Below, in pieces: positions 50,904 to 54,608 of a stretch of DNA of 64,000 bases; position 1 is the first letter of the stretch; every line of letters begins with the position of its first letter. The notes beneath the pieces are model-generated. The model was given only the letters and a program-made list of their open reading frames with translations, did not search any database and had not been told where the DNA came from. The stretch lies in the NCBI GenBank assembly GCA_029250225.1, contig JAQWUY010000010.1, forward strand, positions 1 to 64,000, given 5' to 3'. The position numbers were made by a program, and so were the translations under genes. This DNA comes from Alphaproteobacteria bacterium. GTDB taxonomy: Bacteria; Pseudomonadota; Alphaproteobacteria; JAQWUY01.

Positions 50904-51278
50904 TTAATATCCACCACCTTTTCCGCCACTGCGACCGCCTTTACTGCGACCACCACTACGGCCACTTTTCTTGCCACCACTTGACTTAGATGACTTCATT
51001 CGACTGTTTTGACGGGGTTTTTTAGGTGATTTATTTTCATCTGTTTTAAAGACAGGAGCTTTTGATTTTTTCTTCTCCATGTCTTTTTCAACAGCAAGTT
51101 TATCTTTACTTAACTTGCTATCTTTACTTGCATCTAATCCACCGAAATTAGATTTTGAAACTTTATTATTGCCAATTACTAAATTTAAATTTCCAATTTT
51201 TTTGGAATTTTTTTCTTGAGCATAAGAAGGTAAAGTAATTGATGTTACTAATAATATAATAGTTAATAATTTATTCAT
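50904..51278 (-). CDS. Secreted, strongly basic Gly/Ser/Lys-rich small protein
   Basis: I do not recognise this 124-residue protein. It begins with a signal peptide (MNKLLTIILLVTSITLPSYA, cut before QEKN). The mature part is lysine-rich, and its last 35 residues are repeats of Gly, Ser, Arg and Lys (SGGKKSGRSGGRSKGGRSGGKGGGY). Such a disordered cationic end could bind nucleic acid, phosphate-rich polymers or the cell surface; this is a guess. It has its own terminator. Confidence 0.65.
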   Translation of the reverse strand: MNKLLTIILLVTSITLPSYAQEKNSKKIGNLNLVIGNNKVSKSNFGGLDASKDSKLSKDKLAVEKDMEKKKSKAPVFKTDENKSPKKPRQNSRMKSSKSSGGKKSGRSGGRSKGGRSGGKGGGY

Positions 51279-51470: not shown

Positions 51471-52664
51471 ATGGATATCTCAGAAGTTGTAAAAAAATCA
51501 AAAACGAACCAGTTTTTATTAGGTTTATTGTTTGGAAATATTAAACATTCAAATAATTCTAATGAGTTTTACGTTTATTCAAAATATAAAAATAATTCTG
51601 TTATATTATCAAAACGAGAAATGACTGATTCCGAAAAAAAGTTAACACATACTTCATTAGAACAAAAAACAGAACTTACTTGGCTTTCGAAAAGCAATAA
51701 AAAACAATTAATCCCATCAGACATTAAAAATTACAATCATTTATTTGTATTTAAAAACTCTAACAATCTAACATATATCAATATTTACAATGAACTTTTA
51801 ACTAATGTTAGATCTCTCGATATTGATATAAAAGAATTTTTTGCCGGTTTTTTTTCTTGTCGAGCTTCAATAGACAAAAGTAGCAAATCAATCACCATTG
51901 ATTACTGGTATGACTCTGATTATGAGCTAGAAACCAAAACCAGAGCATTATTAAATTCACTTCCTTTAAGTGATATATCAGCTGTATTTCCTATTAATTT
52001 TAGGGAGCTTCAGAAAGATCAGATAGAAGGAGCAAATAGAGAAACTCAATTTAGAATGAAAGCAAATTGGTTTTTTAACAAGTCGTATTTAATAAATCCA
52101 TACAAACAAGAATGCCTAAAAAAAATAGCAAATAATATGGGTGATTTTAAACCAAGTAATACAATCCCAGATTTATTAAGTAGGGTAAAAAGGTTTTCAG
52201 AAATAATTTATTCTCAAAATAAATTAAGTGAAGAAGATATAGAAAAATACAGATCAAATATAGGCTTAGATCCCGATTCAAATATTGAAAATATAAGAGA
52301 TAAAAAACTCATTAATCTTGCTTGGGGTATATTACCTGATAAATGTGCTGGGTGTAATGAAAAATATCAAATAACGGATAGAACTTTTCCAAGTAAGACG
52401 AGAGACGGGAGATATTATTTAGAAATACATCATATAATATCTCTCGGTGACAACAAGGAATTAGATACTGAATTTAATTTGTCAAAATTATGTCCTGCTT
52501 GCCATACATCATTAAGGAAGGGAAGAGCAAGCGAAGAATATCAGAAAGAAGTTATCAGCAATATATTAAATTACTCTGAAACAGACACCGAATCAATTAA
52601 ATGTTATTTAGACATTTCAGATAATGAACAAGTTATTAAATCTATTCAACAAAGATTACTATAA
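51471..52664 (+). CDS. HNH-family restriction endonuclease candidate
   Basis: A 397-residue protein with a C-terminal HNH (beta-beta-alpha metal) nuclease: a first zinc pair CAGC, the catalytic core YYLEIHHIISLGDN, then LSKLCPACHTSLRKG with the second zinc pair and last histidine. The N-terminal 290 residues are unlike the usual small HNH proteins; near residue 125, KEFFAGFFSCRASID resembles a LAGLIDADG helix with its catalytic acid replaced, so it may hold a DNA-reading domain. It is tail-to-tail with two methyltransferase genes (6-nt overlap), which makes a type II restriction role likely. Target unknown. Confidence 0.78.
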   Translation: MDISEVVKKSKTNQFLLGLLFGNIKHSNNSNEFYVYSKYKNNSVILSKREMTDSEKKLTHTSLEQKTELTWLSKSNKKQLIPSDIKNYNHLFVFKNSNNLTYINIYNELLTNVRSLDIDIKEFFAGFFSCRASIDKSSKSITIDYWYDSDYELETKTRALLNSLPLSDISAVFPINFRELQKDQIEGANRETQFRMKANWFFNKSYLINPYKQECLKKIANNMGDFKPSNTIPDLLSRVKRFSEIIYSQNKLSEEDIEKYRSNIGLDPDSNIENIRDKKLINLAWGILPDKCAGCNEKYQITDRTFPSKTRDGRYYLEIHHIISLGDNKELDTEFNLSKLCPACHTSLRKGRASEEYQKEVISNILNYSETDTESIKCYLDISDNEQVIKSIQQRLL

Positions 52665-53375
52665 AATCATACGAGATTTAGCTATGTCAAAATATTTTTT
52701 ATCTTTTTCAATTCCAATAAAATTTCTACCTAATTTCTGACAGGCAACACCAGTCGTGCCACTACCCATAAAACAATCTAATACAGTTTCGCCTTTATTA
52801 GTATGTATTTTTATAATTTCTTGCATTATTTTCAAACTTTTTTGAGTTGGATGTTCTGTTCTTTCTATCCCTGACACAATTGAAGATTGGAAAAAACTTC
52901 TTAAATATGGTTTGTTACTTGGTCTATTGAATACCCACTTTGAATTCTTATTGACTCCCCATATAGCAAATTCCATATCTTGAACATAACGACGATCTCT
53001 ATTTCTTGGCATAGGGTTAGACTTTTGCCAAACCAAAATATCTTTAATCTCAATATTATTGAGTTCCAATCTTTCAATTATATAACTTAAATTTCTATAA
53101 GAATTGAAAATTATAATACTTCCATTAGGTGATAATAAACTTATATATTTATCGATCCAACTAAGTAAATCAAAATTCTTGTCCCATTCACCAAAGTCAA
53201 CTCCGTGTCTATCAGCAGAATACATTGTATTGAAATTATTATCTTTTGATATATTATAGGGCGGATCTGTTATTATATGATCCACAGTAATACTGTCATT
53301 TTGTAGATTATCAAAAATCTTGTAAGAATCTCCACAATAAATATTGATATTATAATTTAAGAAATTTTCTTGCAA
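52659..53375 (-). CDS. DNA N6-adenine/N4-cytosine methyltransferase (beta class)
   Basis: A 238-residue methyltransferase with catalytic motif IV TDPPYNIS near the N-terminus, a target-recognition middle, PTQKSLKIMQEIIK, and the SAM motif FMGSGTTGVACQKLGRNFIGIE near the C-terminus. The order IV-TRD-X-I is the beta class. DPPY usually means adenine but can be cytosine N4. It overlaps the C5-methyltransferase gene by 26 nt. Confidence 0.92.
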   Translation of the reverse strand: MQENFLNYNINIYCGDSYKIFDNLQNDSITVDHIITDPPYNISKDNNFNTMYSADRHGVDFGEWDKNFDLLSWIDKYISLLSPNGSIIIFNSYRNLSYIIERLELNNIEIKDILVWQKSNPMPRNRDRRYVQDMEFAIWGVNKNSKWVFNRPSNKPYLRSFFQSSIVSGIERTEHPTQKSLKIMQEIIKIHTNKGETVLDCFMGSGTTGVACQKLGRNFIGIEKDKKYFDIAKSRMIL

Positions 53376-54414
53376 TTTCTTCTCCTATTGCTTTTGATAA
53401 TAATGGCGGAACGGCATTTCCAATTTGTTTACAAATTTCTGTTTTTTTACCATAAAAAATAAAGCTATCATTAAAACTTTGTATTCTAGCAGCCTCGCGC
53501 ATAGTTATAGATCTGTTTAAAAATGGATGAGAGTTTTTACCATTTGATGGTGTGTCAAATCTTGTATCAATAGTTGGAGAAGGTTTATCCCACTCTAATC
53601 TACCCCAAGTAGTCGAAAATTTTTGTTTTCCGTGCATTTCAATTGGTAAAAACTCTTTTCCTTTTTCGGGAGGAATCATAGATAATTTTTCTAATGCTAC
53701 ATTAGAGTGATTAGTTGCAATGTGATTATATAAATATTCACTGTCTTTTAATTGTTCTTGATATTTTGAACTAGTTTCTTTTTTATAATCTTGCTTAAAC
53801 TCACCTTCACCTGATTTTAAAAAAGCTAAATCGTATATTGCATCTTTCACAGTTTTAATTTCTTTAATTTTATTAGGTGAAATTTTATCTATTTTTTTCT
53901 TAGTTACAATTATTATTGCTCTATATCTATTTTGTGGAACACCAAAATCGACAGCATTAAAGACATCATATTGAATATTGTAACCTAATTTCTTACATTT
54001 CCTCTCTATTTGGGAAATAAAAAAACCATCTGAACTAGTTAGTAACTCTTTAACATTTTCAATCACAAAAATTTCAGGAGATATTTTTTCTACAAAATTA
54101 AAATACTCCATAAAAAGGTAGTTTCTTTCATCTTCTAACCCTCTTTTTTTTCCTTTTAAGCTAAAACCTTGGCAAGGTGGCCCTCCAATAATCATATTTA
54201 TTTTATTTTCTTTTGCTAATTCAATTATGCTATTAAATTGTTTTTTATTTTTAACATCAGCTTCTATTGTATATGAATCTGGAAAATTAGTGGCAAAAGT
54301 TTTTAGCGCATCAGTATTAAAATCAACACCTATTTTAGTTTCAAATTGTTTTACAGATTCAAAACCATATGACATACCTCCGCAACCACAAAATAAGTCT
54401 AATATCTTAAACAT
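53350..54414 (-). CDS. DNA C5-cytosine methyltransferase
   Basis: A 354-residue enzyme with all main motifs: I DLFCGCGGMSYGF, IV GGPPCQGFS (catalytic Cys), VI FVIENVKEL, VIII QNRYRAII, IX AARIQSF, X QIGNAVPP. I chose the ATG at 54414 (MFKILD), preceded by GGGA, 6 nt away; the longer frame to 54510 would cover the promoter. There is no N-terminal HTH extension of the kind some autoregulating C5 methylases have. It is first in a two-gene methylase operon. Confidence 0.95.
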   Translation of the reverse strand: MFKILDLFCGCGGMSYGFESVKQFETKIGVDFNTDALKTFATNFPDSYTIEADVKNKKQFNSIIELAKENKINMIIGGPPCQGFSLKGKKRGLEDERNYLFMEYFNFVEKISPEIFVIENVKELLTSSDGFFISQIERKCKKLGYNIQYDVFNAVDFGVPQNRYRAIIIVTKKKIDKISPNKIKEIKTVKDAIYDLAFLKSGEGEFKQDYKKETSSKYQEQLKDSEYLYNHIATNHSNVALEKLSMIPPEKGKEFLPIEMHGKQKFSTTWGRLEWDKPSPTIDTRFDTPSNGKNSHPFLNRSITMREAARIQSFNDSFIFYGKKTEICKQIGNAVPPLLSKAIGEEIARKFLKL

Positions 54415-54510: not shown

Positions 54511-54540
54511 TAAAAAATAATTTTAATTACTATAAAATCA

Positions 54541-54589
54541 AGATAATGTGAACGAAGACTAGATATAACTAGGCGAGCAAACATTATCT
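54541..54589. repeat. Nested palindrome between pnp and the restriction-modification island
   Basis: AGATAATGT (54541-54549) pairs with 54581-54589, and inside it CTAG-ATATAA-CTAG (59-72) forms a second hairpin. Read on the minus strand it lies 20 nt past pnp and is followed by a moderately T-rich stretch, so it may be the pnp terminator. An island-boundary site is an alternative. Confidence 0.4.
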
Positions 54590-54608
54590 CGATAATATTC
54601 AATTAAAA

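What the first reader, a model, noticed from the sequence alone, without database searches (positions are those of the whole stretch)
51471..54414. Three-gene restriction-modification island with two different methylase chemistries
An HNH nuclease gene faces an operon of a beta-class N6A/N4C methylase and a C5-cytosine methylase. Two methylases of different kind with one nuclease usually mean an asymmetric recognition site, each strand needing its own enzyme, as in type IIS systems such as MnlI and HphI. The set is inserted between a gene for a secreted protein and pnp.
Basis: partly seen in the sequence, partly recalled or inferred. Interest (0 to 1): 0.5.

Follow-up and report, generated by a model that had tools for sequence, protein, structure and literature searches.

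The report
MnlI-like restriction system, homing-endonuclease-like reader
Three neighbouring genes make a DNA-cutting bacterial defence enzyme and the two enzymes that mark the cell's own DNA, probably at the asymmetric site CCTC/GAGG, and the cutter appears to read DNA with a retired homing-endonuclease domain.

Summary
The adenine methylase is 59% identical to M1.HpyAVI (GAGG). Of 80 named loci kept from a scan, 35 carry the same C5+m6A pair, and 27 of those also a homologous HNH gene. Published methylomes of relatives give m5C in CCTC and m6A in GAGG. It is most likely a new member of the MnlI/HpyAVI Type IIS family; nothing was measured in this organism. New here: residues 8-228 of the endonuclease are predicted to have the double LAGLIDADG (homing endonuclease) fold. 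Two AlphaFold models agree, and a profile comparison beat 200 of 200 shuffles, though its nominal probability is only 3%. No aligned enzyme keeps a catalytic acid at either LAGLIDADG motif, while the HNH site is kept. Invariant residues lie only in the second repeat and the HNH domain. Five literature searches and passages in eight papers showed no report of this.

The parts
51471..52664 (+). Type IIS-like restriction endonuclease, 397 aa: residues 8-228 predicted LAGLIDADG-fold reader, about 274-376 HNH nuclease
51492..51824 (+). First LAGLIDADG-like repeat (about residues 8-118); catalytic-acid position is N23
51825..52154 (+). Second LAGLIDADG-like repeat (about residues 119-228); catalytic-acid position is R131; holds S133, D135, D144, N176, R178, Q181, Q193, R195, invariant in 27 of 27 sequences
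52290..52598 (+). HNH nuclease domain (about residues 274-376): C292, C295, C341, C344, E318, H320, H321, D332, N336, H345
52659..53375 (-). Beta-class N6-adenine methyltransferase (DPPY), M1.HpyAVI-like, predicted to modify GAGG
53350..54414 (-). C5-cytosine methyltransferase (PCQ, ENV, GNAVPP motifs), M2.HpyAVI-like, predicted to modify CCTC

Best explanation
A Type IIS restriction-modification system of the MnlI/HpyAVI kind. The C5 methylase marks a C in CCTC and the beta-class methylase marks the A in the complementary GAGG, so both strands of an asymmetric site are protected (inferred from relatives). The endonuclease recognises unmodified CCTC/GAGG in incoming DNA and its HNH domain cuts a few bases to one side (7/6 for MnlI; not shown here). 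Its reader is predicted to be a single-chain, two-repeat LAGLIDADG domain that has lost both catalytic acids. Because all eight invariant residues outside the HNH domain lie in the second repeat, that half probably makes most of the base contacts while the first repeat serves as scaffold (inference).
For: m6A protein: 304 bits and 59% identity to M1.HpyAVI (PDB 5hfj), whose site is GAGG (PMC5173035, PMC3936762; passages). HP0051 (M2.HpyAVI) makes m5C in CCTC, and the pair is described as highly similar to the MnlI methylase (PMC3411764, passages). The C5+m6A pair is found in 35 of the 80 loci kept (95 relatives were found there), with a homologous HNH gene in 27 of the 35. The presumed target-recognition region of the C5 methylase (residues 197-300) is 55-69% identical to each of the 35 relatives, against 38-56% for residues 1-196; it is the higher of the two in 33 of 35 and equal in L021 and L025. 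The set includes M. agalactiae 14628, M. bovis and H. cetorum; another strain of M. agalactiae, 13377, has measured m5C in CCTC and m6A in GAGG (PMC9465063). LAGLIDADG fold: two AlphaFold models (mean pLDDT 81.8 and 89.9, pTM 0.62 and 0.68). In the 50-row structure lists all 43 and all 40 rows outside the HNH domain are LAGLIDADG proteins; best Z 9.0 (PI-PfuI, rmsd 4.4, 175 residues) and 8.0 (PI-SceI, rmsd 4.7, 167). Foldseek's top hit for the second model is WhiA, E 1.6e-4. hhalign of the N-terminal alignment with 25 LAGLIDADG_3 domains scores 24.2 over 106 columns; best of 200 column shuffles 18.5. HNH domain: Z 9.4 and 10.7 to EcoKMcrA.
Against: No methylation or cleavage data for this organism. 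The sequence of MnlI itself was not available. The C5 target region is least conserved (55-56%) towards three mycoplasma rows, among them the Mycoplasmopsis rows L021 and L025, the genus with a measured site, and GAGG m6A was not detected in M. hominis (PMC10305163). CCTC/GAGG is only weakly under-represented in the window (79 found, 99.3 expected, rank 16 of 136 four-letter words). The HNH protein is only 19-32% identical to its relatives. The fold is predicted: most Z-scores lie below 8, the level under which the tool calls a match ambiguous; the structure lists re-align Foldseek's own candidates; for the window's own model no Foldseek E is below 0.001 and the best LAGLIDADG row has E 0.033; TM-scores to the LAGLIDADG rows shown stay under 0.5; the hhalign probability is only 3%; and no LAGLIDADG family is among the 25 of 36 Pfam families shown for the 27 members.
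Confidence: 0.82

Rival explanations
1. Same kind of system but with a related, different site, such as CCTTC/GAAGG (HpyAV/Hin4II type).
For: HpyAV also has an HNH endonuclease with C5 and m6A activities (PMC2816704, section 5 read).
Against: M.HpyAV's adenine part is listed as gamma class (PMC3936762), whereas this one is beta class and closest to the GAGG enzyme. The C5 target region is well conserved across the 35 pair-bearing loci.
Confidence: 0.08
2. A decayed or methylation-only remnant, as reported for H. pylori HpyAVI, in which the endonuclease no longer cuts.
For: H. pylori is said to lack a functional MnlI homologue (PMC3411764); the M. agalactiae 14628 HNH frame is only 109 aa (L021).
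Against: Here the HNH frame is full length, without stops, and keeps C292, C295, C341, C344, E318, H321, D332, N336 and H345.
Confidence: 0.06
3. The N-terminal half of the endonuclease is not homologous to LAGLIDADG proteins; the match reflects a common alpha/beta arrangement.
For: Most Z-scores (7-9 at best) lie in the zone that the tool calls ambiguous (notes); Foldseek TM-scores to LAGLIDADG rows are under 0.5 and unrelated folds follow from rank 20 on; no Pfam LAGLIDADG family among those shown; hhalign probability 3%.
Against: All non-HNH rows shown in both lists are LAGLIDADG proteins (43 of 43, 40 of 40), and the profile alignment registers the second repeat with the LAGLIDADG motif and the IGF..K end, better than 200 of 200 shuffles.
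Confidence: 0.2

Closest known systems
HpyAVI of Helicobacter pylori (HP0050 m6A GAGG, HP0051 m5C CCTC)
   Same: Beta-class m6A methylase 59% identical to HP0050 beside a C5 methylase; the H. cetorum locus L022 has the same three genes with a 409-aa HNH protein
   Different: In H. pylori the functional endonuclease is reported absent (PMC3411764); here the HNH frame is full length and the gene order is convergent
MnlI (CCTC 7/6), Moraxella nonliquefaciens
   Same: HNH Type IIS endonuclease for CCTC (PMC4081073 and a cited title in PMC2816704, passages); the HpyAVI methylases are described as highly similar to MnlI's (PMC3411764)
   Different: No sequence in hand to compare; host name recalled
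M. agalactiae 13377 J7894_00205 and M. hominis DCM3 + HNH
   Same: m5C in CCTC and m6A in GAGG in M. agalactiae 13377; an HNH gene beside the methylase in M. hominis (PMC9465063, PMC10305163; passages)
   Different: M. hominis DCM3 is one fused C5-beta protein of 592 aa; here two genes. GAGG m6A was not detected in M. hominis
HpyAV / Hin4II (CCTTC 6/5)
   Same: HNH endonuclease with C5 and m6A methylases for an asymmetric site (PMC2816704)
   Different: Adenine methylase listed as gamma class (PMC3936762); methylases fused in HpyAV
LAGLIDADG homing endonucleases (PI-PfuI, I-Tsp061I, PI-SceI, I-DmoI) and WhiA
   Same: Predicted fold of residues 8-228; WhiA is a LAGLIDADG protein used as a transcription factor (titles)
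   Different: No catalytic acid at either motif in the aligned family; joined to an HNH nuclease and encoded beside two methylases

Membership tests
MnlI/HpyAVI-type IIS R-M systems | Beta-class m6A methylase related to M1.HpyAVI | tested here: met
   59% identity, 304 bits, DPPY and FMGSG motifs
MnlI/HpyAVI-type IIS R-M systems | C5 methylase adjacent, with a conserved target-recognition region | tested here: met
   55-69% identity in residues 197-300 to 35 relatives; PCQ, ENV, GNAVPP present
MnlI/HpyAVI-type IIS R-M systems | HNH endonuclease homologous to those beside the same methylases elsewhere | tested here: met
   27 of 35 pair-bearing loci have a homologue; alignment of 27 sequences, window included
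MnlI/HpyAVI-type IIS R-M systems | Methylation of CCTC (m5C) and GAGG (m6A) | not testable with these tools
   Needs methylation calls; known only for relatives
MnlI/HpyAVI-type IIS R-M systems | Cleavage at a fixed distance outside CCTC | not testable with these tools
   Needs purified enzyme
MnlI/HpyAVI-type IIS R-M systems | Direct sequence similarity to R.MnlI | not tested
   R.MnlI sequence not in hand
HpyAV/Hin4II-type systems | Gamma-class adenine methylase | tested here: not met
   Here beta class; gamma listed for M.HpyAV in PMC3936762
LAGLIDADG homing endonucleases | Two alpha-beta-beta-alpha-beta-beta-alpha repeats | tested here: met
   Secondary structure of both models and structure lists; predicted models only, read by eye
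LAGLIDADG homing endonucleases | Sequence match to a LAGLIDADG profile | tested here: inconclusive
   No LAGLIDADG family among the 25 of 36 Pfam families shown; hhalign 24.2 against at most 18.5 in 200 shuffles, yet probability 3%
LAGLIDADG homing endonucleases | Catalytic Asp/Glu at the end of each LAGLIDADG helix | tested here: not met
   Position 23: no D or E in the 26 of 27 rows with a letter (R in 15); position 131: R 26, N 1 of 27

The most novel reading that the evidence does not exclude
The CCTC-specific HNH restriction enzymes of the MnlI/HpyAVI kind are built on a domesticated LAGLIDADG homing endonuclease: its own two active sites were abolished (Arg or other residues replace the acids), an HNH nuclease was joined at the C-terminus, and a fold that normally reads long degenerate sites was narrowed to a strict 4-bp site read mainly by its second repeat. 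No passage read here describes this recognition fold for a Type II restriction enzyme; it would be a direct evolutionary bridge from a selfish homing nuclease to host defence.
Probability: 0.66. Interest if true: 0.68.

Novelty: new member of a known kind. Interest (0 to 1): 0.5.

Why it matters
As a restriction system it is a further MnlI/HpyAVI-type member, in a lineage where it looks rare: a family search of 398 genomes of the phylum matched only the window's own genome at E 1e-10. The wider point is the reader domain. If it is confirmed as LAGLIDADG, Type IIS enzymes of this family show how a homing nuclease can become a host restriction enzyme by losing its active sites and gaining an HNH domain. 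It would also give engineers a natural example of a dead LAGLIDADG scaffold that reads four base pairs and carries a separate cutter.

Tried and rejected
Phage records and viral contigs: no relative of the HNH protein. Plasmids: two partial hits, one next to a C5 methylase. HpyAV-type membership was rejected because of the class of the adenine methylase. Site avoidance as evidence: CCTC/GAGG observed/expected 0.80, too weak to use. Tree of the concatenated methylases (36 rows): the window set has a long end branch (0.77), no well-supported partner, and does not fall with the six rows labelled Pseudomonadota; the donor cannot be named. Promoter-like sites do not exceed shuffles (21 found, mean 25.8). 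PF00961 in 299 genomes gave no LAGLIDADG sequence at E 1e-6. A first profile comparison used loci in the wrong orientation for the minus-strand matches and was replaced; one search failed on a missing file and was rerun. Eight of the 35 methylase pairs had no HNH hit at E 1e-5 (L013, L015, L019, L020, L023, L031, L032, L033); what lies beside them was not pursued. L021 was left out of the HNH alignment because its open frame there is only 109 aa. Moraxella macacae (L079) has an adenine methylase of this kind but no C5 or HNH match in the locus. The library 'viral' of fold search was not used.

Full report
Observation. The HNH gene runs 51471-52664 (+); the operon runs the other way with the C5 methylase first (54414-53350) and the adenine methylase second (53375-52659). 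The HNH and adenine-methylase genes converge with a 6-nt overlap and the two methylase genes overlap by 26 nt. Family matches are strong for both methylases and clear for the HNH domain, and a PADLOC Type II restriction-enzyme model covers the whole HNH protein. The neighbours are pnp and a small protein with a signal-peptide-like start and no family.

What the methylases are. The adenine methylase has a beta-class layout (DPPY before FMGSG) and its best solved relative is M1.HpyAVI of H. pylori (PDB 5hfj, 304 bits; 59% identity). PMC3936762 (passages) lists HP0050 as beta class for GAGG (m6A), HP0051 for CCTC (m5C), and M.HpyAV for CCTTC with a gamma-class adenine part. PMC3411764 (passages) calls the HpyAVI methylases highly similar to that of MnlI, and states that a functional MnlI endonuclease homologue is absent in H. 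pylori. At the position that PMC5173035 (passages) ties to recognition of GGAG in strain 26695 (P41), the window has N, and none of the 36 rows has P.

Relatives. A scan of genome contigs found 95 relatives of the adenine methylase and kept 80 loci. In 35 of the 80 a C5 methylase of the same kind lies directly before, or in frame with, the adenine methylase, and 27 of these 35 also have a homologous HNH gene. The two methylases are one open frame in 20 of the 35 and separate in 15. Relative to the methylases, the HNH gene is upstream and divergent in 13, upstream and co-directional in 4, downstream and co-directional in 10, and convergent in none of the 27; the window is the only convergent case seen (counted). 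Organisms include Mycoplasmopsis agalactiae and M. bovis, Helicobacter cetorum and H. saguini, Pasteurellaceae, Campylobacter, Clostridia and Saccharibacteria, as named by submitters. In the C5 enzyme I took residues 197-300 as the target-recognition region (boundaries chosen from recalled motifs). Its identity between the window and each relative is 55-69%, that of residues 1-196 is 38-56% and that of residues 301-354 is 61-72%; the target region exceeds the N-terminal part in 33 of 35 and equals it in L021 and L025, the two Mycoplasmopsis rows. A reader at least as conserved as the catalytic N-terminal part suggests that the site is shared. M. agalactiae 13377, another strain than L021, shows m5C in CCTC and m6A in GAGG (PMC9465063, passages); four of 22 M. 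hominis strains, those with the fused homologue, show CCTC m5C but no detected GAGG m6A, and an HNH gene lies alongside (PMC10305163, passages).

The endonuclease. An alignment of the window protein with 26 relatives (19-32% identity) shows two conserved blocks. The C-terminal block is an HNH domain: C292, E318, H321, D332, N336, C341, C344 and H345 in 27 of 27, C295 in 26 and H320 in 21 (N in the other 6); its best structural match is EcoKMcrA (Z 9.4; Z 10.7, rmsd 2.1). The N-terminal block, residues 8-228, is predicted as two alpha-beta-beta-alpha-beta-beta-alpha repeats (secondary structure, read by eye). Against the PDB, every row outside the HNH domain among the 50 entries shown is a LAGLIDADG protein (partly by title, partly by my knowledge of the enzyme): 43 of 43 (PI-PfuI Z 9.0, I-Tsp061I 8.6, PI-SceI 6.2-7.8, WhiA up to 7.5, I-DmoI up to 6.9) and 40 of 40 (PI-SceI up to 8.0, PI-PfuI 7.9, WhiA up to 7.2). 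These lists re-align Foldseek's own candidates. In Foldseek itself the best LAGLIDADG row for the window model has E 0.033; for the second model it is WhiA at E 1.6e-4, with unrelated folds from rank 20 (E 0.23) on; TM-scores to the LAGLIDADG rows shown stay under 0.5. The hhalign probability itself is only 3%, and no Pfam LAGLIDADG family was among the 25 of 36 families shown, so the fold rests on the agreement of these lines.

What is lost and what is kept. At the place of the catalytic acid (five residues after the motif's Gly) the alignment has R in 15, other non-acidic residues in 11 and a gap in 1 of 27 (repeat 1, position 23), and R in 26 and N in 1 of 27 (repeat 2, position 131). Invariant residues number 0 in repeat 1, 8 in repeat 2 (S133, D135, D144, N176, R178, Q181, Q193, R195), 0 in the linker and 8 in the HNH domain. 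The simplest mechanism is that the LAGLIDADG domain only reads DNA, mainly through repeat 2, and the HNH domain cuts. Shown: sequence conservation and loss of acids. Predicted: fold. Inferred: which half reads the site, the site itself and the cut distance.

Literature. Five searches concerned LAGLIDADG: with MnlI and restriction endonuclease (0 papers); with Type IIS, recognition domain and HNH (4 papers); with restriction enzymes, Type II restriction and evolution; with restriction-modification and AlphaFold; with REase. These listings hold 24 different papers. I saw the passages containing LAGLIDADG in seven (PMC11997821, PMC11855218, PMC1564403, PMC551604, PMC8845596, PMC3009677, PMC11279042) and passages on restriction enzymes in an eighth (PMC3943268); the other 16 I saw as listings only. 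None of these passages describes a LAGLIDADG recognition domain in a Type II restriction enzyme. The review PMC4081073 has no occurrence of LAGLIDADG. Most subscription papers, including those on MnlI, are not held, so this is no proof of novelty.

Host. The genome (1.2 Mb, 48 contigs) has 4 matches to PF01555 and 5 to PF00145, the window's two included, so other methylases are present. The family profile of the endonuclease was found, at E 1e-10, in 1 of 398 genomes of the phylum, the window's own. The tree of the methylases gives no supported partner for the window set.

Noticed in passing
window 1-64000: Palindromes ACGT (7 found, 84 expected), CATG (16, 161 expected), GATC (65, 188 expected) and GGCC (25, 61 expected) are strongly under-represented, as if other restriction systems act or acted in this genome; PF01555 and PF00145 have nine matches genome-wide, two of them the genes described here.
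   Followed up: partly
L021:6933-8714 and L025:6804-8708: M. agalactiae 14628 and M. bovis 8790 carry the C5 and beta-class adenine methylases as one open frame. If strain 13377 is alike, this may explain why PMC9465063 found no separate enzyme for GAGG m6A there and assigned both marks to one methylase.
   Followed up: partly
L022:5708-8690: Helicobacter cetorum keeps a 409-aa HNH endonuclease frame directly before the HpyAVI-type methylases, whereas a functional one is reported absent in H. pylori (PMC3411764).
   Followed up: no
L119:6960-9348: Lactiplantibacillus plantarum plasmid pLY7801 carries an HNH protein of this family (37% identity over 54% of the query) followed by a C5 methylase, with a PemK/MazF-type pair on the same plasmid.
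   Followed up: no
50904-51278: Small protein with a signal-peptide-like start and a Gly/Ser/Lys/Arg-rich tail and no match in Pfam, NCBIfam or PHROGs at E 0.01.
   Followed up: no
54516-54608: By eye, the stretch between pnp and the C5 gene is bounded by AT-rich inverted copies (aataattttaatt / aattaaaattatt); the terminator scan did not report it.
   Followed up: no
L021:5664-5993: The HNH gene of M. agalactiae 14628 shows only a 109-aa open frame around the match, suggesting decay in that strain.
   Followed up: no
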